A DNA stretch of 33,473 nucleotides, taken from the IMG/VR virus record IMGVR_UViG_3300023184_000344, positions 1-33,473 of that record. One strand, given 5' to 3'. Shown here one piece after another: positions 4,152 to 33,473 of this stretch. The stretch's first letter is position 1, and the number at the start of each line of letters is the position of its first letter. The position numbers and the translations under genes were made by a program. This DNA comes from a virus. The notes beneath the pieces are model-generated. The model was not told the DNA's origin and did no database searches. It saw only the letters and a program-made list of their open reading frames with translations.

Positions 4152-7100
4152 ATGTCAGAGCAGACCTTTAAGTCGCCAAATTTTTATGAACGAGAAGTTG
4201 ACTTGTCATCACCCGCCCAAGGCGGTCCTACAGGCGTTCCTGCAGGAGTTATTGGTACTGCAAACAAAGGACCAGCCTTCGTACCAGTAACTTTTGCAAA
4301 TTTTAATGAATATGTCAAGACTTTTGGAAATCTTGACACGAAGCAATTTGGCCCTTATGCAGTAAATGAATTTCTAAAGCATCGCTCTGCTTTGACTTTT
4401 ACAAGAGTTCTCGGCGCAGGAGCAAATTCAACTGAAGTTGATCTTGAAGAAACTGCAACAAAAGGAACTGTAAAAAATGCAGGTTTTAAGCTTGATGGAA
4501 GCAATACAGGCGCTGTACAGCTCCTTGCTGCCAAGCATACGTTCGGCCCTCACGAAGCAACTTCAATCAACATGTTCAATCACAATGATTCAATTACAAA
4601 TGTTGATAGCGTAAATCTTGTTCGCGGAATCGTCATGGTTCCTTACGGCGCAAGAGTCATGGTTACGGGTTCTGCAAATACGCTTAATCCTGTTTTAGTT
4701 ACAGTTAGTGATGACGGAGTAGTCTCTGGCGGTAAGTTTAAGCTCATAATTTCTTCTACTCTTGGTTCAAGCTTTTCAACGACCGATGGAATTTCTGGCG
4801 TCCGTGTCTTAACTGCTTCTTTCGATCCATCCGATAAAGATTATTTTGGAAAAATTCTTAATACCGATCCAGATAAGTTCTATCAAGAGCAACATTATCT
4901 TCATGCTGATTTTGCAGTAGACAATGCAGTTGCTTATGTTGGCGATACAAATACAGTTGCTGTTCTTTCTGGTTCTTCAAATATGAGCTCCGCAGGAACA
5001 TCTTTTCTCAGCTCTTTTGGTTCATATAATACAAGATTTTCTGCTCCAAAGACAACATTTTTCATCTCACAGCCCTTTGGAAATACTGAATATAATCTTT
5101 TCAAGGTTGAAGCATTGGATGATGGTGAGTATGCAAATAGTCAGTACAAGGTGTCAATTAGCAACCTTAAGGCATCGACCAATGATGCATATAAGTATGG
5201 AACATTTAATCTACAGATTAGAGACTGGAATGATACAGATCTAAGTCCAACAGTTATAGAGCAGTTTTCTAACTGTTCACTAGATCCGTCATCGGCAAAT
5301 TATGTTGCAAAACTAGTTGGTGATAGAAAAGTCTTTTATAAGTTTGACACTCTTGACCAAAATGAAAAGAGAATAGTTGCTACTGGAAAGTATGCAAATA
5401 ATTCAAAGTATGTTCGCGTCATCATGAGCGAAGATATCGAAAAGGATCAGGTTCCTTCTTCTGCTCTACCGTTTGGCTTCAGAGGCCTTAATCTTCTTGG
5501 TATAAATCCAAATTTACGTGACAATCAACCACTTAAATCAAGTGATTCAAGAACTCATGGTGTTCTTACTTCAAATCCATCGATGACAGGCTCTTTAATG
5601 CCTCCTGTTCCGTTTAGATTCAAAGTAACACGCGGAGAAGTCACAGGCTCTGCATTCGCAGGACAGCCTGGCGTTTCAGAACAAGCCAATGTATCTTTTT
5701 ACTGGGGCGTTAAGTTTGAAAGAAGCAGCACTTCTTCCAATACAAGCGCTTCTGATAAATCACTATTAAATGCAAACTTGCTTACAGAAAAGAATGGTCT
5801 TCTTGAAGCATATAGCAAGTTCGTTGGCCTTGAACAGCTTGACGCTTTGATGACTGGATCAATTGTAGATTCACTTCATAATGACAAATTTTCTCTTGCC
5901 AATGTTGCATTCTTCAATGGATCAATTGGCGACCTAACAAGCTCTGTTAATTCACACATGAGAGAAGCAGCCTATATTAGAAATGCGAAGCTAGATAGCA
6001 CAAAATACACGTATAATGACCCAGATCTAAGCAGAAATAGAATTACTCTTGCAACGCTTCTTGCCTCAGGAACTGCATCAGAATTTAATAGATTTTCTTC
6101 TTATTCAAAGTTTACCAACTTCATGCACGGTGGATTTGATGGTGTCAACTATCTTGATAGAAATGCCCGTCGTCTTAATGACAAGTCTGTGTCTTTTGAC
6201 TTTGGTGGTGGCGCTTCAAGCACATTTGTTCCGCCTGGTTTTAATGCAACAAATCCATCAGGTACAGATGTAAACAATAACGGCGTCGCTTCATATCTTA
6301 CAGCCGTTGACATTATGACGAACCCAGTTGCTGCAAATAACAATATACTTGCGCTACCTGGCATTCGTGAACCATATATCAATGACATGACAATGACAAG
6401 GGTCAGAAATTATGGACTTTCTCTTCATGTCATGGATATACCTGCATATGACGACAATGGCAATAGACTTTATGATGATTCTTCTGAAAAGCCTAATATT
6501 ACATTGACTGCCAATGCACTAGATAATCGGACAATAGACAACAACTATGTTTCAACATATTTCCCAGATGTCTTTATTGATGATGCAACTAATCGAAGAA
6601 AAGTAAAAGTACCTGCATCGGTTGCAGCCCTTGGAGCTCTTGCTTTCAATGATCGCGTCGCTTATCCTTGGTTTGCACCAGCAGGTTTCAATAGAGCGGC
6701 TCTTGACTTTGTCAGCAATGTCGGGGTTCGACTTAATGTTGGTGACAGAGATAGACTCTATGAGTCACGCATTAATCCAATAGCTACATTCCCACGTTTA
6801 GGATTTGTAATTTACGGACAAAAGACTCTGCAGATAAGCAAATCTGCGCTTGATAGAGTTAACGTTAGACGCCTTATGCTTGAAATCAAGAGAACAATTT
6901 CAGCTCTTGCTCAAAAGCTAGTTTTTGAACAGAATACTGCGGCTGTACGCAACAAGTTTGTTGCTGATGCATCTTTCCAGCTTAGTCTTGTTCAGGTTCA
7001 AGCAGGCATTGAAGCCTTTCAAGTTATTATGAACGAGTCCAATAATACACAAGAAGATTCCGATCTCAACCGACTAAATGGAAGAATCGTTGTCGTACCA

Positions 7101-7166
7101 ACACGAGTCGTTGAATTCATTGCAATTGACTTCATCGTAACAAACAGTGGAGTTCAGTTCGTTTGA
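4152..7166 (+). CDS. tail sheath protein A (contractile sheath, T4 gp18-like)
   Basis: A contractile tail sheath subunit of 1004 residues; T4 gp18 has 659. The N-terminus has the sheath signature: YEREVDLSS, then GVPAGVIGTANKGPAFVPV and the FGPYAVNEFL helix. The conserved C-terminal core, from about residue 830, includes YPWFAPAGFNRAALDF, the DRDRLYESRINPI strand, VIYGQKTLQ, DRVNVRRLMLEIKRTI and the final VVPTRVVEFIAIDFIV strand. The central ~700 residues are a large Ser/Asn/Thr-rich region, probably surface-exposed domains inserted between the core halves, as in other sheaths. AAGGAG precedes the ATG. It is followed 78 bases later by a paralogue. Confidence 0.93.
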   Translation: MSEQTFKSPNFYEREVDLSSPAQGGPTGVPAGVIGTANKGPAFVPVTFANFNEYVKTFGNLDTKQFGPYAVNEFLKHRSALTFTRVLGAGANSTEVDLEETATKGTVKNAGFKLDGSNTGAVQLLAAKHTFGPHEATSINMFNHNDSITNVDSVNLVRGIVMVPYGARVMVTGSANTLNPVLVTVSDDGVVSGGKFKLIISSTLGSSFSTTDGISGVRVLTASFDPSDKDYFGKILNTDPDKFYQEQHYLHADFAVDNAVAYVGDTNTVAVLSGSSNMSSAGTSFLSSFGSYNTRFSAPKTTFFISQPFGNTEYNLFKVEALDDGEYANSQYKVSISNLKASTNDAYKYGTFNLQIRDWNDTDLSPTVIEQFSNCSLDPSSANYVAKLVGDRKVFYKFDTLDQNEKRIVATGKYANNSKYVRVIMSEDIEKDQVPSSALPFGFRGLNLLGINPNLRDNQPLKSSDSRTHGVLTSNPSMTGSLMPPVPFRFKVTRGEVTGSAFAGQPGVSEQANVSFYWGVKFERSSTSSNTSASDKSLLNANLLTEKNGLLEAYSKFVGLEQLDALMTGSIVDSLHNDKFSLANVAFFNGSIGDLTSSVNSHMREAAYIRNAKLDSTKYTYNDPDLSRNRITLATLLASGTASEFNRFSSYSKFTNFMHGGFDGVNYLDRNARRLNDKSVSFDFGGGASSTFVPPGFNATNPSGTDVNNNGVASYLTAVDIMTNPVAANNNILALPGIREPYINDMTMTRVRNYGLSLHVMDIPAYDDNGNRLYDDSSEKPNITLTANALDNRTIDNNYVSTYFPDVFIDDATNRRKVKVPASVAALGALAFNDRVAYPWFAPAGFNRAALDFVSNVGVRLNVGDRDRLYESRINPIATFPRLGFVIYGQKTLQISKSALDRVNVRRLMLEIKRTISALAQKLVFEQNTAAVRNKFVADASFQLSLVQVQAGIEAFQVIMNESNNTQEDSDLNRLNGRIVVVPTRVVEFIAIDFIVTNSGVQFV

Positions 7167-7244: not shown

Positions 7245-10200
7245 ATGGCACAGTTGAAATTTGGAAGTGCAGGCGTAACAACAAGAGAGATTGATATTTC
7301 AGGACCGGTGGCTCGTCAGCCAGTCGGTATACCTGCAGGTATTGTCGGAACTTCATTGAAAGGACCAGCATTTGTTCCTGTAACAGTTGGTAATATTTCA
7401 GACTGGTATAGCAAGTTTGGTCAGACAGATGGTAAGAAGTTTGGCCCACTTGCAGTTATTGAATGGCTTCGAAATGCTCAGGCTGTAACATATGTCAAAG
7501 TCCTCGGCGTCGGAGATGGAAAACTAACAAATGTCGACGGTTCAGTTACTTCTGCAGGCTTTACTGCAGGACAAAAGCTTCCTAATCCCGACAATTATGG
7601 ACATGTTGAGAAGAATCCATATGCTAATAGTGGCGGCGTCCTAGGAAGAACATATTTCCTTGGTTGCTTCATGTCAGAATCTGCTGGTTCTACAATCTTT
7701 AGTGATGCAGGTCTTCAGGGAGCAAATACACCTTCATTCAGTGTAACTGCCTCATTGCCAGTAGTAAGAGGCGTTCTAATGGCTCCAAGTGGTGTCATTA
7801 TGACACTTTCTTCTTCATTAGTTGGCATTTCAAGCAATGCACCTGGTTCAAGCTTGGTTGCAACTGAAGCCTCAACTTTTGGATCTCAGCTCGGTGAATT
7901 AATTTATAATTCAAATAGTTCTCCAAAACAAGACTTTATTCTCTTTCTAAATGGTCACCAGGGCCTAACTGCTTCTTATCCTAATGTTATTACAGCTTCT
8001 TTTGATGTTACATCAAACAACTACTTTGCAAAATCTCTAAATACTGACCCACACAAGATTCAAGAAGCTGGTCACTATTTGTATGCACACTGGGATATAC
8101 ACCCATCGCTAGCAGTTGTCACCGGTACTGGTTTGACAGTCAAGGGGTTGGTCAATGTTCAAGGTGATTCATATTCATCTCCATTCTCATTCCTTTCTTC
8201 TGCATCTCTAGGAAGAGATACAGGTAGCACAACTGTTCCAAATTATGAAAATTTTAGAACGCGCTTCGGGCATGCTGTCTCTCCTTGGCTTGTCTCACAA
8301 AAGTTTGGTGGAAAGCCTTCAAATCTTTTCAAGCTTCACACTCTTGATGACGGTGCAGGACCATCATCACGATTCAAGATCTCTATTGAGAATATCACTC
8401 CTTCAAATGATCCATTGAACAAATATGGTTCTTTTAATGTCGTGCTAAGATCTTGGTCAGACAGAGATCTTGACAAGAAACCACTTGCAAATGAGACATT
8501 TAGCGGTGTCAATCTTGATCCTTCTTCAGACAGATATATCGCCAAAGTTATTGGAGATGTTCATGCATATTATGACTTCAATCGCGAAGAATCTGAACAG
8601 AAGCTTGTTATTGAAGGGAACTACGAGAATAGATCAAATTATGTTCGCGTAGAAGTTCACCCTGATGTTGAAAATGGGTTTGTTGATCCTACTGCCCTTC
8701 CACTTGGCTTCAGAGGTATTGACCATCTTGTTACATCTGGTTCTGCTCCATTGGCACCATTTGGCGCGTCTCTTAATGCGGCACTTGAAGTGTCAAATGC
8801 AGTAAAGAGTGCAGTAACTCCTCCACTTCCTTTTAGAAGCAAGATTACATCTTCTGATGAATGGACCGTTAAAGAACAAGTTGAATCCAAGCTATACTGG
8901 GGAGTTCAATTTGAACATCCTCGGACACTAACAACGAAGAATGCTTCAACTCTACCAAATGACAGTCTTAAGTCTTTTGCTTCTTTCTTTCCAAATTTCG
9001 ATGAAGACAATGTAAGATTTGTGGTAGGAGACAATCATGGACAGCCTGATACAGCTGCACTTGGAATTGTAGACTCTGATAGATTCTGCAACAATTTCTT
9101 CTCTCTTGAGAATCTTCAAGTTGTTACAGGTTCTGACGGTCTTGCAAGCCCAAATAAGTGGGCAAAGGCCGTATATGTCAGAAACGGTCATGTTGGATCT
9201 GTAAACTCTGCACAGATTGCTTCAGACGGTCTTGGAGACGAGAACAAGCTTCGTGCATTCAAAGTCGAAGATCTAGCAACGAACAAACAGTATGGAAAGT
9301 TCACCCTTCTAACACAAGGAGGATTCGACGGAGTCAATGTCTTTGATATGGACTCTAGTGAAATTAATAATGCTGCTGTTCATGCTGACATGGATGCAGC
9401 TGCTGGGCGCGGACAACAGAACGGACCAAACGTTCGTTCTTACTTGAAAGCACTTGACATCATGAGAAATGTTGTTAATCTTGACATTAAGCTCTTGGCA
9501 ATTCCTGGAATAAGAGAGCCGCTTGTTACTGATGCAGCAATTCTTGCAGTTCATGACAGGTTCGATGCAATGTACGTAATGGATATTGAACAAGTCGATG
9601 AAGCCGGAGAACAAGTTGAAACAGATACTCAGCTTCCTTCAGTTGTCAACACAATAAATACTTTCAAGGATCGCTCAGTTGACTCTTCATTCGCCGCCGC
9701 TTACTTCCCAGACGTTCTATATCATGATCCAAATGGAGTCAATCTTCAAGTACCTCCCTCTGTTCTCGTTCTTGGAGCTCTTGCTCTAAATGATTCAGTT
9801 GGCCACCCATGGTTTGCTCCTGCTGGTTTCACTCGCGGTGCTCTTCCCGATGTTGCACTTGAACCAAGGGTTAGGCTCTCACAACGTGACATGGATACAC
9901 TGTATGACAATTCAATTAATCCACTTGTTGCATTCCCAGGAGCTGCTCGAAGTGGAACAAATCCAAACAGCGGAATAGTTGTTTGGGGACAAAAGACTCT
10001 TCAGGTTGCAGCATCTGCTCTTGACCGAGTCAATGTACGTCGTCTACTCATTGAGATAAGACGTCAAGTTCGTGACATTGCTCAGACAATTCTCTTTGAA
10101 CCAAATCGTGAGGCAACTCTCTCACGATTCTCTTCAGCCGTAACACCACGTCTACAGAGAATTCAAGCCCTCAGCGGTCTTGAAAGATTCAAGGTAATCA

Positions 10201-10337
10201 TCGATTCATCTACAACGACTCAAGATGACGTCGAGAACAACACGATCCGCGGCAAGATATTCGTTCAGCCTACAAAGAGCATAGAGTTCGTTAGCCTTGA
10301 CTTCGTCGTTGCTAACAACCTCACACAGGTTCAGTGA
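7245..10337 (+). CDS. tail sheath protein B (paralogue of sheath A)
   Basis: A second contractile sheath protein, 1030 residues. It shares both ends of sheath A: N-terminal REIDISGPV followed by GIPAGIVGTSLKGPAFVPV and FGPLAVIEWL, and C-terminal HPWFAPAGFTRGAL, VVWGQKTLQVAASALDRVNVRRLLIEIR and VQPTKSIEFVSLDFVV. Collinear blocks also occur in the middle (HYLYAHWDIHPS against HYLHADFAVDNA; LPLGFRGIDHL against LPFGFRGLNLL; FTLLTQGGFDGVNVFD against FMHGGFDGVNYLD). The two are clearly full-length homologues that have diverged widely, not a recent duplication. No frameshift or truncation is seen, so both are probably functional. Either could be the bulk sheath and the other a minor or alternating component. 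Confidence 0.93.
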   Translation: MAQLKFGSAGVTTREIDISGPVARQPVGIPAGIVGTSLKGPAFVPVTVGNISDWYSKFGQTDGKKFGPLAVIEWLRNAQAVTYVKVLGVGDGKLTNVDGSVTSAGFTAGQKLPNPDNYGHVEKNPYANSGGVLGRTYFLGCFMSESAGSTIFSDAGLQGANTPSFSVTASLPVVRGVLMAPSGVIMTLSSSLVGISSNAPGSSLVATEASTFGSQLGELIYNSNSSPKQDFILFLNGHQGLTASYPNVITASFDVTSNNYFAKSLNTDPHKIQEAGHYLYAHWDIHPSLAVVTGTGLTVKGLVNVQGDSYSSPFSFLSSASLGRDTGSTTVPNYENFRTRFGHAVSPWLVSQKFGGKPSNLFKLHTLDDGAGPSSRFKISIENITPSNDPLNKYGSFNVVLRSWSDRDLDKKPLANETFSGVNLDPSSDRYIAKVIGDVHAYYDFNREESEQKLVIEGNYENRSNYVRVEVHPDVENGFVDPTALPLGFRGIDHLVTSGSAPLAPFGASLNAALEVSNAVKSAVTPPLPFRSKITSSDEWTVKEQVESKLYWGVQFEHPRTLTTKNASTLPNDSLKSFASFFPNFDEDNVRFVVGDNHGQPDTAALGIVDSDRFCNNFFSLENLQVVTGSDGLASPNKWAKAVYVRNGHVGSVNSAQIASDGLGDENKLRAFKVEDLATNKQYGKFTLLTQGGFDGVNVFDMDSSEINNAAVHADMDAAAGRGQQNGPNVRSYLKALDIMRNVVNLDIKLLAIPGIREPLVTDAAILAVHDRFDAMYVMDIEQVDEAGEQVETDTQLPSVVNTINTFKDRSVDSSFAAAYFPDVLYHDPNGVNLQVPPSVLVLGALALNDSVGHPWFAPAGFTRGALPDVALEPRVRLSQRDMDTLYDNSINPLVAFPGAARSGTNPNSGIVVWGQKTLQVAASALDRVNVRRLLIEIRRQVRDIAQTILFEPNREATLSRFSSAVTPRLQRIQALSGLERFKVIIDSSTTTQDDVENNTIRGKIFVQPTKSIEFVSLDFVVANNLTQVQ

Positions 10338-10711: not shown

Positions 10712-10738
10712 TTAAATCTGCCTCTTCTAGAGATTTAA
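10712..10738. terminator. weak bidirectional hairpin between convergent genes
   Basis: An 8-bp inverted repeat (TTAAATCT / AGATTTAA) with an 11-base loop sits where the + strand gene ending at 10702 meets the - strand gene ending at 10727. It overlaps the last codons of the latter. The T/A runs are short on both sides, so terminator activity is uncertain. Confidence 0.3.
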
Positions 10739-12388
10739 AACAAAAACTGAGTTCTCGCATCCCCATATCTTGACAACACCAGCTGACTCGGCAACTTGGG
10801 CTTCTGTTAGACCTCGTTCTGAGTCAGCTTTGTATTTAAAGCGATTAAATCGATTTGTCATATCAGTCCACCACCATACAATTGGTGTTATTTTCTTTTG
10901 AATAAAACCTAATTCTAAGAACAAATTAGAGTCAAGATAATTTAGTCTTGCATCTGTCGTATATTGAACATGATTAAAATTATTGCTCTTTGCCCACTGA
11001 CATGCTCTAGTCAATAATGTCTTCTTATCTTGTAATGACAAGACTGCCACTGTTGATGCACAAAATCTTGAAATTTCAACATAATCAGATTTTGACAAAT
11101 GTGTTATCTTTTTCAAATTAACTGCTGCAACAATCTCATTTAATTCATTAATTGCTCCAAAAGATACAATTGAATTATGTGATCCTGAATCTATGTGGTT
11201 CTTGGCAAAAAAATTGCGTGCAGATTCTTTTGATAATTCTTCAAATCGAGCGACTGAAGAGACTATATTTAATCCCAGCGCATCCAAGATAATTGATTTG
11301 ACTACATCTTGTCTGTCTCTCCATTCGTCTTCAAAGATATGGAGAAGATTAATTCCAAGCTGACGTGCAAGCTTTGACTTGTTGTTGTGGTATGCGCTTG
11401 ACTTGTTAATATGTGAATGCCAATATAGTCCATTATATTCTATTGCAACTCTTCGCTGAGGACAAAAGATGTCTAGTTCATTTCCGGTGATTGTTCTTCT
11501 ATCATTTCTTATGATCTTTACACCTATTGATTCAATCCACCTGGCTATATCTTCTTGTGCTCTTGATCCTCCGGGGGAGCAATGAAAACATTTGCCTCTC
11601 CATAGACTATTAACTGAACCGCTAATGACTTCATTGCAAGTCTTGCATTTGACAACAATAACTTTTGACGATCTATTCGTATAGTTTTGAAGCCCATCTA
11701 TTACCTCAAAATCACCTGAAGATTCAATTCTACTCTTTACTTCATCGACATTAAGTCTCTTCATCGAATCAAGACGATCTCGAAGCTCTTTTCTCTGGAG
11801 AGACAAAGATACTTTGTGCGACATCCTCTCAATACGTCCATCTGTTTCTTTTGTCAGACCTTTAGCCCATGGAACAAGATCACCATTTGCAAATTTTTCT
11901 TTTAAATTATTGGCAGCCTCGGCAACTCTTTCATCCGAATGCCTTGTCAAACCAGAATTCCAGATTTTAATCTTTCCTTCATTGATTGCTTTTCTTCTGC
12001 CTCTAGATGTTTTTTGAGCTCTTTCAGCAACTCTTGAGTCGTTCTCTTTTGTCAAATCTTTTGACCAGCCTTCTTTTCCCATAAGAGCCGCTGACCTTTT
12101 TGCAGCAATCTTTGCAGCATCTTCTGGAGTGCATACGACGTATATTTTGCCATTATGCCCGGCAATCATTTCAGAATAACCTTTTCCCCACCCGTTCCAT
12201 TTCGTATTAAGTCCACAACCACATTTGCATTTTATCGCCCCACCATTTAAGTCATTCCATACTTCCTGTGCAGACTTCTTGTGCTCTTCTTCAAAATGTT
12301 TCGCCAAGGAAGTAATGCGCTTCGATTTAAAAGCATCACACAGAGGACATCTTTGATAGTCTAATTTTCTTCCTTTATGCGCTCCCAT
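10727..12388 (-). CDS. free-standing homing endonuclease (Vsr/PD-(D/E)XK-like, Hef-type), copy 1
   Basis: The only gene on the - strand; 553 residues. In order it has a C2H2-type finger (C14, C17, H31, H36), a CKCGC knuckle (residues 54-58) with a later AGHN, and three NUMOD-like repeats of the form W-x-x-GLTKxxDxRV (about residues 95-190). A small CxxC/CxxC zinc motif (CKTCNEV... CFHC) comes next, then the nuclease core near residues 300-330 (ELDIF, then VAIEYNGLYWHS) followed by GINLLHIFEDEW. The C-terminus ends WWWTDMTNRFNRFKY and VVKIWGCENSVFVL. Such proteins cut DNA at a specific site and spread by repair. AAGGAG precedes the ATG. It is a paralogue of the gene at 13049, and neither flanking gene is interrupted. 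Confidence 0.85.
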   Translation of the reverse strand: MGAHKGRKLDYQRCPLCDAFKSKRITSLAKHFEEEHKKSAQEVWNDLNGGAIKCKCGCGLNTKWNGWGKGYSEMIAGHNGKIYVVCTPEDAAKIAAKRSAALMGKEGWSKDLTKENDSRVAERAQKTSRGRRKAINEGKIKIWNSGLTRHSDERVAEAANNLKEKFANGDLVPWAKGLTKETDGRIERMSHKVSLSLQRKELRDRLDSMKRLNVDEVKSRIESSGDFEVIDGLQNYTNRSSKVIVVKCKTCNEVISGSVNSLWRGKCFHCSPGGSRAQEDIARWIESIGVKIIRNDRRTITGNELDIFCPQRRVAIEYNGLYWHSHINKSSAYHNNKSKLARQLGINLLHIFEDEWRDRQDVVKSIILDALGLNIVSSVARFEELSKESARNFFAKNHIDSGSHNSIVSFGAINELNEIVAAVNLKKITHLSKSDYVEISRFCASTVAVLSLQDKKTLLTRACQWAKSNNFNHVQYTTDARLNYLDSNLFLELGFIQKKITPIVWWWTDMTNRFNRFKYKADSERGLTEAQVAESAGVVKIWGCENSVFVLNL

Positions 12389-13048: not shown

Positions 13049-14710
13049 ATGGCCTACAAACGTATTTGCTGCCCAAAATGTTCTGATTCTTTTGGTCAAG
13101 AAGCACGATTTATCGATCACTTGACAGAAGCCCACGGAGTTTCAGATACATCTCAGCTATATGTTGACATGTTCTGCAATGGAAATTGGCCAACATGTCA
13201 GTGTTCTGTTGACTGCCATGAGAAGATTAAGTTTGCATCTTGGAAAGTCGGTTTCATTTCGAAGTATGTTAGAGGGCATAATGCTAAAGTAGATAGCATT
13301 TATCTGAATGCAGACAAACAAAAAGAGTTTGCTCAAAAGCGCCGCATCGGATATGCCGCAGGAGACTATAAAGTCTGGAATGCAGGATTGACCAAGAAAA
13401 CTGATGAAAGAGTTAAGCTGCAATCTGAAAGTATTTCAAGGTCCCTCGCCGAGGGTTATTCATCTGGAAAGATTATTGACTGGCGGGTAGGAAATGAAGA
13501 GAAAGCATCCTCTGCCGCAAAGAAGTGCTCTGAAACAAAGTTGCAAATGTATGCTGATGGGCTCCTTAAACCATGGAACAAAGGAAGAACAAAATTTGAA
13601 GACGACAGGATTAAACTAATATCAGATAAAATCTCTCAAAAATACAAGAATAATCCTGAAATGGGAAACAGGATTAAACAAAAAAAACTTGCCGAGAGAT
13701 TAGAAAAATATTCAAATTTTACTCTTATCTCCTGCATTGATTCATATAAGAAGCGAAGAATAGAGAGGCTTACATTTAAATGTAACAAATGTGAAGAAAT
13801 TCAAGAAAAAAGCCTTGCAATGCTTGAAGAAACTCCTGTCTGCTTTTCATGTCATCCTAAAGAGTCGAAGGGGCAGCTTCAAATTTATGAATTCGTCAAA
13901 TCTCTCGTTCCAGATGCTATTTTGTCTGATCGAACAGTTCTTTCGCCTAAGGAGCTTGACATATGGGTTCCTTCTGCAAATTTAGGTATAGAATACAACG
14001 GGCTGTATTGGCATTCTGAATCAAACTTGAAAGACAAGCTATATCATCAGAACAAACATGAGATGTGTTCTGCAGCAGGAATTAATCTTTTGTCTATCTA
14101 CGAAGATGAATGGCGAGACAAGAGGAACATTGTAGAGGGAATGCTAAGACATCGACTTAAGCTGCCATTAGAAAAATGGGATGCTAGAAAATTAGAAGTC
14201 GCCGAAATAAGTCATATTGAAGCTAGAAATTTCTTTGAAGCGAATCATCTTGAAGGTCATGTTAAGTCTGCAGTTGCATTTGGATTAAAGTGTAAAGTTT
14301 CAGGGCAGATATTAGCAGCATTATCTTTGCGACGCCCATTTCATAAAAAGTATTCAGGGCAGCTTGAGGCAGGCAGATGTTGCACTTTAGCCGGTCATTC
14401 AGTGAGAGGATGGCTGGGTAAGCTCACGAAGGCCGCCAAAAATTATGCTAAAACAAGCGGTGTTGCTAGACTTATGACTTATGTGGATTCAAGGGTGGGA
14501 TCTGGCAACGGTTATGTTTTCGCAGGATGGAGACTTATAATGCGTGATACAGCACCAAGATTCTGGTGGACCGACTATAAGCATAGATTTAATAGATTCA
14601 ATTATAGGGCTGATCGTATCAGAGGAATGTCACAAGTAGATGTTGCAGAAGAAGGAGGCGTCGTTCAGATTTGGGGATGTTCTAATTCTATGTTTTGTCT
14701 TGACGTGTGA
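13049..14710 (+). CDS. free-standing homing endonuclease (Vsr/PD-(D/E)XK-like, Hef-type), copy 2
   Basis: A 553-residue paralogue of the - strand gene at 10727, with the same architecture. It has an N-terminal CPKC...HLTEAH finger, a Cys-rich knuckle (CQCSVDC) with RGHN, and NUMOD-like repeats (VWNAGLTKKTDERV; PWNKGRTKFEDDRI). A CNKC...CFSC zinc motif precedes the nuclease core at about residues 302-325 (ELDIW, then GIEYNGLYWHSE) and GINLLSIYEDEW. The C-terminus is FWWTDYKHRFNRFNY followed by VVQIWGCSNSMFCL. Identity between the copies is concentrated in the core and C-terminus, while the repeats differ, suggesting different target sites. It lies 58 bases after the tube gene and has no ribosome site. 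Both copies look intact. Confidence 0.85.
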   Translation: MAYKRICCPKCSDSFGQEARFIDHLTEAHGVSDTSQLYVDMFCNGNWPTCQCSVDCHEKIKFASWKVGFISKYVRGHNAKVDSIYLNADKQKEFAQKRRIGYAAGDYKVWNAGLTKKTDERVKLQSESISRSLAEGYSSGKIIDWRVGNEEKASSAAKKCSETKLQMYADGLLKPWNKGRTKFEDDRIKLISDKISQKYKNNPEMGNRIKQKKLAERLEKYSNFTLISCIDSYKKRRIERLTFKCNKCEEIQEKSLAMLEETPVCFSCHPKESKGQLQIYEFVKSLVPDAILSDRTVLSPKELDIWVPSANLGIEYNGLYWHSESNLKDKLYHQNKHEMCSAAGINLLSIYEDEWRDKRNIVEGMLRHRLKLPLEKWDARKLEVAEISHIEARNFFEANHLEGHVKSAVAFGLKCKVSGQILAALSLRRPFHKKYSGQLEAGRCCTLAGHSVRGWLGKLTKAAKNYAKTSGVARLMTYVDSRVGSGNGYVFAGWRLIMRDTAPRFWWTDYKHRFNRFNYRADRIRGMSQVDVAEEGGVVQIWGCSNSMFCLDV

Positions 14711-30368: not shown

Positions 30369-30431
30369 CTTGCTGCACAAAAGCCGATATCCTTTCTTTT
30401 CGTTAAAGTGTAAAGCATGTTATCTTCATAT

Positions 30432-30437
30432 TACAAT
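30432..30437 (+). promoter_or_regulatory. -10-like box close to the start of the polymerase gene
   Basis: TACAAT ends eight bases before the ATG at 30446, which lacks a ribosome site. Slightly upstream, GCATGTTATCT (30415-30425) resembles the recurrent ATACTTATCT element. No clear -35 is seen at 17 bases. Confidence 0.35.
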
Positions 30438-30445
30438 GACATTGC

Positions 30446-31651
30446 ATGTCGCGATTTTGCATCGATTCTTCTGTATTAGGCACAAAAAGACATTTCATAT
30501 CTGATGACGGATTTCGGTGGTCAGACTCTGTTCCTCGTGATACATGGCACATGACAGGGACGCCAAAAGATTCACCTGTCGCACGTTGTCTTGACACGCT
30601 CTTTGCGCTCATTGGACATGCCCCTGCACAGGTTCCTAAAAAATATATCACGGCGATGAACTGCCTCGTCACCGGGTCACATGAAGCATTGCAATGGCAG
30701 CACATTCTTCCTGCAGAGGCCTTTCAAGAATACTTCAAAAATATTGTGCAGGATACTTCATCTATATTTCCAAATTTACCTGTTGCCTACTACGATGCTG
30801 CATGGACTGCAGGTTCTCGTGTGTTGGCGGCATTGAAACCTGCGAAGATAGATCTGGTTCGATGGCAAGAGCTCTCTTCAGATCAGTCACAAAATCAGCA
30901 GGCAATTGAGTCTTTTAAACCGGGTCGAACTGGTTATGCTCGCGGCGCTGAATATGATCGTTTTGGAACTCGCACTGGACGCATGACGACGCCTTCTGGA
31001 CCGCAAATTTTGACGCTGAAGAAGTCAAACAAGAATATGATTAAGTCTGCTTTCACTGATGGAATTATCTGCACATTGGATTTCCGAGCACTTGAAGCAC
31101 GCATTGTTCTGAGCGAAGCGGGGAAAAGTTCAGACTCTGAAGACATGTATGCAGAAATGGCAAGAGACTTATTTGACGGAAAAGTTGAACGCGACACTGT
31201 AAAGACTGCCGTGATCAGCGAATTATACGGAATCTCTCGTGGTGCTCTTGCTATACGTCTTCAAGTTCCAGGAGACGTTCTTGATAAGTTCATCTCAGTT
31301 GTTCGGTCACATTTTGGCATTTTGGATCTAAAGAGCAGACTCAAAGCAGAATTAAAAGAGAACGGATTTATTAAGAACAGATTTGAACGCCCGCTGCGGC
31401 TTGAAGAGACACAAGACAACCTGCTTGTCAATACATATTCACAGTCATCTGGCGTCGACATAGCGCTGCTTGGTTTTGACACCATCTTGCAGAGCCTAGG
31501 ACCTGACGGCATCAGACCTCTCTTTGTTCTTCATGATGCAATCATCTTGGACGTTAGAGGTGACAGGATCGCAGATGTCCAAGGTTGCACATCTGTTTCG
31601 ATTCCCACCTATGAACACAAATTTCCGCTGAAGTATGATCAAATCATCTGA
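30446..31651 (+). CDS. compact family A DNA polymerase domain (no exonuclease)
   Basis: A 401-residue protein with the complete series of PolA polymerase motifs. TRTGRMTTPSGPQILTL (175-191) matches the TATGRLSS...LQNIP region. Motif A is LDFRALEARIVL with D212, and motif B (O-helix) is R249, K253, Y261 in RDTVKTAVISELYGIS. GFIKNRFERPLRL (307-319) and TYSQSSGVDIALL (330-342) follow. Motif C is FVLHDAIILDV with D364, where the usual HDE is HDA. The two catalytic aspartates are kept. The O-helix position of Taq F667 is Ile257. There is no 3'-5' exonuclease or 5' nuclease, and the N-terminal ~160 residues are divergent. T4 relatives use a family B replicase, so this is unlikely to be the main replicase. 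Confidence 0.85.
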   Translation: MSRFCIDSSVLGTKRHFISDDGFRWSDSVPRDTWHMTGTPKDSPVARCLDTLFALIGHAPAQVPKKYITAMNCLVTGSHEALQWQHILPAEAFQEYFKNIVQDTSSIFPNLPVAYYDAAWTAGSRVLAALKPAKIDLVRWQELSSDQSQNQQAIESFKPGRTGYARGAEYDRFGTRTGRMTTPSGPQILTLKKSNKNMIKSAFTDGIICTLDFRALEARIVLSEAGKSSDSEDMYAEMARDLFDGKVERDTVKTAVISELYGISRGALAIRLQVPGDVLDKFISVVRSHFGILDLKSRLKAELKENGFIKNRFERPLRLEETQDNLLVNTYSQSSGVDIALLGFDTILQSLGPDGIRPLFVLHDAIILDVRGDRIADVQGCTSVSIPTYEHKFPLKYDQII

Positions 31652-31689: not shown

Positions 31690-32322
31690 ATGAGAATTAG
31701 ATTATCACATCTTCGTCAAATTATCAAAGAAGAGGTTCTTAGGATCACAGAAGGCACGCTCTACGATAACGCCGCCGAAATTACAACATTTCTTACGTCG
31801 AAGAAAGCACAAGCTGATACGAATTGGGCTTTATCACAATTAATATCTAAAAATAACCCTTATGGTCTTGAAGCTACAGATTGGGATGATCCTAAAGAAT
31901 GGAATAACATCCTTAAAGACGTCGAAGGAGAAATCGGCAGCGGGCTCGCCCAAAAATACAAAATTAAAGACCCCGCCGCGCTCAAGCAAGCCGCAGCGAA
32001 GGGCAGCGCGAAACACAAGGAAGAGACGGAAGACGAAGAAGGAGAGTCCGACCCCTTCGCTCCTAGCCAGAAGCTTACTCCAGATCAAATTGCGCAAAAT
32101 AAGGCGAGAAGAAAACTCTCTGACGAGGACCGACAAAAGGCTGCCGACGACGCTGACGGCGACATCGGTCCAGACGGGGACGATCCCTTCGGCGACCTCC
32201 GCACACCGGCACAAAACGCAGCAAGAAAAAAGAAAGAGTGGCGTGCTCGCAAGAATCCGAAGCAGCAACTTCCAACCGCCGAGTCGATGAGAAGACTTCG
32301 ACGACTGCTTCGTGATTATTGA
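31690..32322 (+). CDS. acidic low-complexity protein with capsid-targeting-like leader
   Basis: A 210-residue protein of unknown function. It opens with MRIRLSHLRQIIKEEV, the same helix type as the gene at 10361, followed by LRITE-G, a possible (I/L)xE prohead-protease site after residue 21. Residues 30-85 contain Trp-rich helices (TNWALSQLISKNNPYGLEAT; DWDDPKEWNNIL). Residues 95-180 are a highly charged disordered stretch (EDEEGESDPF; DDADGDIGPDGDDPFGD). The C-terminus is basic (RRLRRLLRDY). AAGGA precedes the ATG. It ends 22 bases before a terminator, closing the transcription unit that includes the polymerase gene. Confidence 0.75.
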   Translation: MRIRLSHLRQIIKEEVLRITEGTLYDNAAEITTFLTSKKAQADTNWALSQLISKNNPYGLEATDWDDPKEWNNILKDVEGEIGSGLAQKYKIKDPAALKQAAAKGSAKHKEETEDEEGESDPFAPSQKLTPDQIAQNKARRKLSDEDRQKAADDADGDIGPDGDDPFGDLRTPAQNAARKKKEWRARKNPKQQLPTAESMRRLRRLLRDY

Positions 32323-32413: not shown

Positions 32414-33007
32414 ATGTCCATCACACCTGAACAAATTGCCGAGAACTTTGACAAATATCGAGTTTTCTTTGAGAAGTTAGAAGACAGAGCTCCTGCAGCA
32501 CTTGATCTTGTAGATAGTCTTGGTGAGAGGCTTGCATTGTGTCCTGCATCATCTCGAAAAGATTTTCATTGCGCTTTTCCTGGTGGTCTTGTCGATCATT
32601 CTCTAAGAGTTTTAGGAAATACAATGCGTCTTGTCAAGGCATTTTCATGGGATGTTCCAAAAGATTCACTGATCATTGGTGCTCTTTTGCATGATCTTGG
32701 AAAAGTTGGCGATCATGAGACTGATCTTTATGTTCCACAAGATTCAGATTGGCATCGTGACAAGCTAGGTGAAATGTATAAGCACAATAAAGAGATTCAG
32801 TACATGACTGTACCCGACCGCGGTGTTTGGCTATGTCAACATTTTGGATTGAAGCTTACACAAACGGAATGGCTCTGCATCAGACTAAATGACGGTCAGT
32901 ATGCTGATGAAAATGCTCCATATAAGATGAAAGAGCCTCTTTTGGTTGATGCTGTCCACATGGCAGATTTGATCTCAACGAAACAAGAGAAGAAGCTTTT
33001 TACTTGA
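32414..33007 (+). CDS. HD-domain phosphohydrolase
   Basis: A 197-residue metal-dependent phosphohydrolase of the HD superfamily. The metal ligands are visible in order: H62 in FPGGLVDHSLRV, H93-D94 in ALLHDLGKVGDH, and D185 in DAVHMADLIS, with H143 (CQHFG) as a probable extra ligand. The GGLxDHSLRV form resembles the HD domains of YhaM-type exonucleases and other small HD proteins that hydrolyse nucleotides or RNA. The substrate cannot be read from sequence. No second domain is present. It is the first gene after a terminator and promoter, so it is expressed independently of the tail genes. Roles could include nucleotide pool control or degrading a signalling nucleotide, neither proven. Confidence 0.82.
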   Translation: MSITPEQIAENFDKYRVFFEKLEDRAPAALDLVDSLGERLALCPASSRKDFHCAFPGGLVDHSLRVLGNTMRLVKAFSWDVPKDSLIIGALLHDLGKVGDHETDLYVPQDSDWHRDKLGEMYKHNKEIQYMTVPDRGVWLCQHFGLKLTQTEWLCIRLNDGQYADENAPYKMKEPLLVDAVHMADLISTKQEKKLFT

Positions 33008-33023: not shown

Positions 33024-33293
33024 ATGAGCATTTTATTGAGAAAATTCATTGCTGAGGCTATTGCAGCTGAACTTGACGGAAATCCTGCTGTTTCAGGAAG
33101 TCAATTAATATCACCAGATGAAGTCTTAAAAAATAAATCAGAGGATAAGGACGAGGATTCGGATGAAGTGGATGAAATTAGTGTTGCAGGTAATATTGCA
33201 GGATTTACAGGACCTCTTGAAGATGATGAAGGAGCCCTCGAAGGGCCTGGCGCTCATTCGAGAGGAAAAAGAAGGCAGAGTTCAGCTCGCTGA
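33024..33293 (+). CDS. small acidic protein with FIAEA leader (T4 internal-protein-like)
   Basis: An 89-residue protein starting MSILLRKFIAEAIAAELDG. The KFIAEA segment closely resembles the T4 capsid-targeting leader MKTYQEFIAEA, and IAE-A is a possible prohead-protease cut. The rest is disordered and strongly acidic (NKSEDKDEDSDEVDEIS), then Gly-rich with a short basic end (SRGKRRQSSAR). There is no ribosome site, and the recurrent ATACTTATCT ends two bases before the ATG. Frame and composition look real, but the start is uncertain. It is probably a packaged internal protein or scaffold-associated factor, inferred from the leader only. Confidence 0.6.
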   Translation: MSILLRKFIAEAIAAELDGNPAVSGSQLISPDEVLKNKSEDKDEDSDEVDEISVAGNIAGFTGPLEDDEGALEGPGAHSRGKRRQSSAR

Positions 33294-33451: not shown

Positions 33452-33473
33452 ATGGCACTAGATCTAAAAGCAA
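33452..33473 (+). CDS. start of a downstream gene (partial)
   Basis: ATG at 33452 begins MALDLKA and runs off the window edge. A long purine-rich site (GAAGAGGAAGAGG) precedes it at good spacing, so the start is convincing. Seven residues cannot identify the product. Confidence 0.6.

What the first reader, a model, noticed from the sequence alone, without database searches (positions are those of the whole stretch)
30446..31651. Exonuclease-less 401-residue family A polymerase domain in a tail gene cluster, with motif C HDA
All polymerase motifs are present with both catalytic aspartates (D212, D364), but the HDE glutamate is Ala and the O-helix Phe is Ile. T4-type phages normally replicate with a family B enzyme. 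A stand-alone PolA palm/fingers unit next to baseplate genes suggests a repair, lesion-bypass or terminal-processing role, or half of a split polymerase. It could also be packaged, since its neighbours carry capsid-targeting-like leaders.
Basis: partly seen in the sequence, partly recalled or inferred. Interest (0 to 1): 0.65.

Follow-up and report, generated by a model that had tools for sequence, protein, structure and literature searches.

The report
Proofreading-less accessory phage DNA polymerase
This gene encodes a small DNA polymerase without a proofreading domain that some large T4-like phages carry, at the head of their replication genes, in addition to a full-size replication enzyme; it belongs to, or sits next to, a type first described in 2024, and the odd motif that drew attention to it is common in phages.

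Summary
The ORF is real and conserved: 401 aa, family A polymerase (PF00476 2.7e-10), Klenow/Taq-like fold in the model (Z about 21-24), both catalytic Asp and the other core residues kept. HDA and Ile/Leu at the O-helix Phe are clade-wide. HDA is not striking: in 14 reference family A enzymes (13 phage, E. coli) the HDE Glu is E in 4, A in 5, S in 4, Q in 1. The gene borders the tail genes but heads a conserved module: polymerase - leader - HD hydrolase - leader - gp32-type SSB - UvsX - actin-like - 5'-3' exonuclease - DnaB. It is probably not the replicase: all three related contigs over 80 kb carry PolIII alpha. The same gene position holds a more diverged mini-PolA in phages with family B, A or C replicases; that kind was published in 2024 as divPolA1. 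Best reading: an active, proofreading-less accessory polymerase for short gap filling, perhaps with the operon's stand-alone 5'-3' exonuclease as a 'split Pol I'. The accessory role is well supported; the exact job is inferred. The window's contig is a 33 kb fragment, so its own replicase could not be checked. Whether this clade lies inside divPolA1 or beside it is unresolved.

The parts
30408..30440 (+). Conserved upstream element: GTGTAAA box about 37 nt before the start codon, with a TA-rich -10-like stretch about 12-14 nt before it; promoter-like
   Evidence: TGTAA box at -34 to -37 in 13 of 16 loci, within -30 to -44 in 15 of 16, never the stop codon of the upstream gene; in the loci scanned it is nearly confined to this gene's start. 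Promoter function is inferred.
30446..31651 (+). Mini family A DNA polymerase, 401 aa, no proofreading active site
30446..30625 (+). N-terminal ~60 residues: short beta-rich segment, possibly a remnant of the 3'-5' exonuclease domain
   Evidence: Strands 3-6, 16-20, 22-26, 33-36 in the model; whole-model alignments start at Klenow residue 349. Remnant status is inference.
31079..31081 (+). D212, motif A catalytic Asp (Klenow D705); E217 (E710 sugar gate) follows
31190..31228 (+). O-helix, motif B R249-K253-I257-Y261 (Klenow R754-K758-F762-Y766)
31532..31540 (+). Motif C H363-D364-A365 (Klenow H881-D882-E883)
31690..32322 (+). 210-aa protein with a charged N-terminal leader (MRIRLSHLRQIIKEEV); small leader proteins occupy the same place in relatives
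32414..33007 (+). HD-domain phosphohydrolase, conserved neighbour
   Evidence: PF01966 1.9e-6; phrog_28876; 63-83% identity in 26 loci
33024..33293 (+). 89-aa leader protein, conserved neighbour
33453..33473 (+). First codons of the gp32-type single-strand DNA-binding protein (MALDLKA...), cut by the contig end
   Evidence: Sequence compared with the SSB of L002 and G001

Best explanation
It is an active, proofreading-less accessory family A DNA polymerase of the divPolA1 type, the first gene of the replication/recombination module of a large T4-like phage. Shown by sequence: intact polymerase core, no visible exonuclease active site, purifying selection, a fixed place upstream of SSB, UvsX, 5'-3' exonuclease and DnaB, and a separate full-size replicase in relatives. 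Inferred: it does short, distributive DNA synthesis on SSB-coated templates, most likely filling the gaps left when the operon's stand-alone 5'-3' exonuclease removes Okazaki primers. The two proteins would do in trans what the polymerase and 5'-nuclease domains of bacterial Pol I do in one chain, next to a PolIII-type replicase. I put the accessory polymerase at about 0.85 and the Okazaki gap-filling job at about 0.45.
For: Equivalents of R668, D705, E710, R754, K758, Y766, Q849, H881 and D882 are kept in all ten clade members aligned, N845 in nine; Klenow/Bst/Taq fold, Z 21-24; dN/dS 0.07-0.18. PolIII alpha (PF07733) in all three relatives over 80 kb, G001-G003, with PHP, NTPase and finger domains in G001; no family B in any of 13 related records; where family A was found by Pfam, this gene was the only match. 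Gene order polymerase - HD - SSB - UvsX - 5'-3' exonuclease - DnaB holds wherever the contig reaches far enough; the nuclease matches 5_3_exonuc_N at 5.3e-27. The same position is kept in Flavobacterium phage immuto and in 80 Mel-JY01-type loci, with no other order seen. Bacteria lacking Pol I mostly have a solo 5'-3' exonuclease (PMC12926913), and an engineered exo-less Klenow is an active polymerase (PMC6457538).
Against: No biochemistry. The Okazaki role rests on gene order and analogy; the same neighbours (SSB, UvsX) fit recombination or repair synthesis. The window's contig ends before UvsX, the nuclease, DnaB and any replicase, so these are known only from relatives. T4 manages with gp43 plus RNase H and needs no second polymerase (general knowledge).
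Confidence: 0.6

Rival explanations
1. A lesion-bypass or recombination polymerase: it extends UvsX-made D-loops or copies past damage, with low fidelity, like other exo-less family A enzymes.
For: Next to SSB and UvsX wherever the contig reaches them; no proofreading site; bacterial PolA2/APEX with a vestigial exonuclease is thought to act in mutagenic repair (PMC12926913).
Against: The 5'-3' exonuclease and DnaB belong to the same module, which fits fork work at least as well.
Confidence: 0.3
2. It is the phage's replicase, exo-less, perhaps working with a separate exonuclease.
For: It heads the replication operon; it is the only family A match in the related records.
Against: PolIII alpha is present in every relative over 80 kb; syntenic homologues coexist with family B (7 of 9 Mel-type records over 70 kb) or a full-length family A enzyme.
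Confidence: 0.05
3. A catalytically dead structural or loading factor that only keeps the polymerase fold.
For: The motif C Glu and the O-helix Phe are replaced.
Against: The motif C Glu is replaced in 10 of 14 reference PolAs, including full-length phage enzymes; the remaining active-site residues are kept at 40-60% overall identity.
Confidence: 0.05
4. A virion-packaged enzyme acting on the incoming genome or its ends.
For: Bordered by tail genes; neighbours have leader peptides.
Against: The polymerase itself has no leader; its conserved partners are replication genes.
Confidence: 0.03

Closest known systems
divPolA1 (Yutin et al. 2024, Virol J 21:200, PMC11348598)
   Same: Diverged family A polymerase encoded besides a regular A, B or C replicase; upstream of a conserved set of replication genes; palm catalytic residues kept; 3'-5' exonuclease inactivated. 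Flavobacterium phage immuto, its named member, has the same gene order.
   Different: The window clade keeps E710, R754 and H881, which immuto- and Mel-type proteins replace by His, Tyr and Tyr; its N-terminal part is shorter; similarity to the Mel-type set shows only by profile comparison (3.7e-9). Whether the published uncultured members include this clade could not be checked.
Bacterial DNA polymerase I / Klenow fragment
   Same: Polymerase fold and core residues.
   Different: No 3'-5' exonuclease active site and no fused 5'-3' exonuclease; the latter is a separate gene about 6 kb downstream in the relative G001.
PolA2/APEX of Actinobacteria (PMC12926913)
   Same: A family A polymerase with a vestigial exonuclease besides a PolIII replicase.
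   Different: Bacterial chromosomal, with a beta-clamp motif; no beta clamp (PF02767) was found in seven related phage records.
Phage replicative PolAs (T7 gp5, SPO1-like Goe7, Kurnik)
   Same: Family A; several also carry HDA or HDS.
   Different: They keep a 3'-5' exonuclease domain and are normally the phage's replicase.

Membership tests
Family A DNA polymerase (PF00476) | Significant profile match and Klenow-type fold | tested here: met
   40.2 bits, cut-off 34.3; Z 21-24 to Bst, Klenow and Taq
Family A DNA polymerase (PF00476) | Catalytic Asp in motifs A and C, Arg/Lys/Tyr in motif B | tested here: met
Family A DNA polymerase (PF00476) | Template-directed DNA synthesis | not testable with these tools
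   Needs purified protein
divPolA1 | Present in addition to a regular DNA polymerase | tested here: met
   In relatives only: PolIII alpha in G001-G003. Not testable in the window's own 33 kb contig
divPolA1 | Upstream of a conserved array of replication genes | tested here: met
   same order as immuto
divPolA1 | Main palm catalytic residues kept | tested here: met
divPolA1 | 3'-5' exonuclease inactivated | tested here: met
   No DEDD set recognisable in the ~170 residues before the palm; reference enzymes keep theirs
divPolA1 | Truncated thumb | tested here: inconclusive
   Two long helices, 90-110 and 113-129, in the model; extent not measured against Klenow
divPolA1 | Common descent with immuto-type proteins | tested here: inconclusive
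   Joined in the tree at 92/67, unstarred, with long branches; a grouping with Kurnik and Backyardigan is not rejected, p 0.325
T4-type replication with a family B replicase (gp43) | PF00136 match in related records | tested here: not met
   0 of 13 related records, all possibly incomplete; they have PolIII alpha instead

The most novel reading that the evidence does not exclude
The window clade is a distinct, undescribed lineage that, with the operon's stand-alone 5'-3' exonuclease, forms a two-protein 'split Pol I'. This gap-filling unit stayed fixed in the replication operon while the main replicase around it was exchanged among families A, B and C.
Probability: 0.3. Interest if true: 0.6.

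Novelty: new variant of a known kind. Interest (0 to 1): 0.4.

Why it matters
Replicases are usually taken as the stable centre of a phage replication system. Here the small accessory polymerase keeps its place beside SSB, recombinase, 5'-nuclease and helicase while the main polymerase varies among three families. That gives a testable claim about which enzyme finishes the lagging strand in large T4-like phages. It also offers a naturally exonuclease-free family A polymerase of about 400 residues, something so far obtained by engineering Klenow. And it corrects a trap: replacing the motif C Glu does not mark an inactive or exotic phage polymerase.

Tried and rejected
HDA as a meaningful oddity: rejected, because the position is E, A, S or Q in 14 references. 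Similarity to T7 RNA polymerase (motif C HDS, aliphatic O-helix residue): profile comparison found none, and E217, the DNA-type sugar gate, is kept. Rhodothermus phage RM378 as a split family A precedent, which I recalled: no PF00476 match at E 0.01 in its genome, and its gene annotated 'similar to DNA polymerase I' overlaps a match to the 5'-3' exonuclease. A direct search for homologues with the polymerase alone found one locus; searching with the HD neighbour found the rest. No hits in bacterial genome contigs. A DEDD exonuclease (PF00929, PF01612) and a beta clamp (PF02767) were not found in the relatives tested, though diverged ones could be missed. The GTGTAA box as a genome-wide promoter: not enriched in G001 (12 against 24 expected), so it appears specific to this gene's start. 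The deep tree does not settle the relation to immuto-type proteins. Czernecki et al. 2023 on family A subfamilies could not be read.

Full report
OBSERVATION. The ORF at 30446-31651 (+) encodes 401 aa. It matches DNA_pol_A (2.7e-10, over the cut-off), phrog_17 DNA polymerase (2.7e-15) and E. coli Klenow fragment (4.6e-6). A profile of the family matches Taq polymerase at 1.9e-10. An AlphaFold2 model from 22 homologues (mean pLDDT 82, pTM 0.82) aligns with Bst, Klenow and Taq polymerases at Z 21-24 (best Foldseek E 7e-14).

HOMOLOGUES. The polymerase itself retrieved one relative, but its conserved neighbour, an HD hydrolase, retrieved 28 loci, of which 24 carry the polymerase or its cut end. 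Several are near-duplicates. Identity to the window protein is 40-64% except for one 62-residue end at 84%. Both catalytic Asp and HDA are present in every sequence that covers them; the O-helix position is Ile in 4 and Leu in 18, window included. dN/dS in pairs of 240+ codons with a usable dS is 0.07-0.18, with dS near saturation in most.

IS HDA UNUSUAL? I aligned 14 reference family A polymerases: E. coli Pol I and 13 from phages, T7 gp5 among them. The position of Klenow E883 is E in 4, A in 5, S in 4 and Q in 1, while R754, K758, Y766, N845 and Q849 are kept in all. HDA is therefore ordinary for phages. Leu at position 762 is a recognised viral class (PMC6302109); Ile would be dropped by the filter of one survey, which kept only F, L or Y (PMC9069017). 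What is unusual is the missing exonuclease: no DEDD set can be recognised in the window clade, whereas the references keep D424 and Y497/D501.

CONTEXT. Upstream are baseplate and tail genes. Downstream are a leader protein, the HD hydrolase, another leader protein and the first codons of a gp32-type SSB, where the contig ends. In relatives the order continues with SSB (phrog_1192), UvsX (phrog_97), an actin-like protein, a 5'-3' exonuclease (phrog_107; Pfam 5_3_exonuc_N) and DnaB (phrog_19), then ribonucleotide reductase. The gene also has its own conserved upstream element: a TGTAA box 34-37 nt before the start codon in 13 of 16 loci (15 of 16 within 30-44 nt), never the stop codon of the preceding gene, and nearly confined to this gene in the loci scanned. 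Position and box both argue that it is the first gene of the replication module rather than a tail-operon gene. Promoter function is inferred.

NOT THE REPLICASE. Of 13 related records (two of them only distant HD-gene relatives) none has family B, and the three over 80 kb all have PolIII alpha. In the 298 kb relative G001, PolIII alpha has PHP, NTPase, finger and HhH domains in one gene that also holds an intein-like segment. These records may be fragments, and the window's own contig is only 33 kb, so its replicase is unknown.

DISTANT COUSINS. A profile of the family found a weak match in Microcystis phage Mel-JY01, a 408-aa protein annotated as hypothetical, upstream of SSB, RecA, 5'-3' exonuclease and helicase. 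Its own relatives fill at least 109 contigs; in the 80 kept, mini-polymerase - SSB - RecA - 5'-exonuclease - DnaB is the only order seen, complete in 37. Flavobacterium phage immuto has the same order, with the gene annotated 'DNA polymerase family A', plus a second, full-length family A enzyme elsewhere. A 484 kb uncultured phage, LR756508, also has the mini-polymerase, with family C and family B matches. Seven of nine Mel-type records over 70 kb have family B. In the Mel set E710, R754 and H881 are replaced by His, Tyr and Tyr in all 62 distinct sequences, whereas the window clade keeps the canonical residues.

LITERATURE. Yutin et al. (2024; PMC11188092, PMC11348598) named this kind divPolA1 in immuto and related phages, 14 in all: an extra PolA beside a regular A, B or C polymerase, upstream of replication genes, palm residues kept, exonuclease inactivated, thumb truncated. 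So the kind is known. Their uncultured members are not held here, so it is open whether the window clade is among them. My tree joins the two groups only weakly and with long branches (92/67) and another placement is not rejected (p 0.325); shared gene order is the stronger argument for orthology.

MECHANISM. Shown: conserved active site, no recognisable proofreading site, purifying selection, replication-module position, separate replicase in relatives. Inferred: distributive gap filling together with the module's stand-alone 5'-3' exonuclease, a 'split Pol I'. This fits the report that most bacteria lacking Pol I have a solo 5'-3' exonuclease (PMC12926913) and the activity of an engineered exo-less Klenow (PMC6457538). 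Lesion bypass or UvsX-coupled synthesis is the main rival and cannot be separated by sequence.

VERDICT. A real, active-looking accessory polymerase; a variant of a recently described kind. The headline motif is ordinary; the conserved place in the operon beside a varying replicase is the interesting part.

Noticed in passing
G001:C1:208532-209533 (-), also L005, L009, L010, L013, L015, L016, L022, L024: Between UvsX and the 5'-3' exonuclease lies a 333-aa actin-like protein matching Pfam Volactin (8e-65), 84-87% identical between phages; no PHROG match.
   Followed up: partly
L067:5555-6778, L073-L152, L162:1-1323: In the Mel-JY01/immuto mini-polymerases the sugar-gate Glu is His, the motif C His is Tyr and the O-helix Arg is Tyr (62 of 62 in the Mel set). 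Altered sugar selection is conceivable and testable.
   Followed up: partly
window 4152-7166 and 7245-10337: Two tail sheath genes of about 1000 aa each in tandem, both matching phrog_23 in their C-terminal third.
   Followed up: no
window 10727-12388 (-) and 13049-14710 (+): Two homing-endonuclease-like genes of 553 aa (phrog_3339) on opposite strands flank the tail tube gene.
   Followed up: no
G001:C1:210296-212171 (-): UvsX is interrupted by an intein-like insert with a frame break (N part ends at EKIG|CVGPST..., C part resumes ...SHN|TMYGDP), while L002 has it uninterrupted. Split intein or sequencing error not resolved.
   Followed up: no
G001:C1:184571-188485 (-); G002:C1:36033-38214 (-): PolIII alpha holds a Hint/intein-like segment in G001 (Hint_2, below cut-off) and is spread over two ORFs in G002.
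   Followed up: no
window 30408-30440: Gene-specific conserved TGTAA box and -10-like stretch immediately upstream of the polymerase start.
   Followed up: partly
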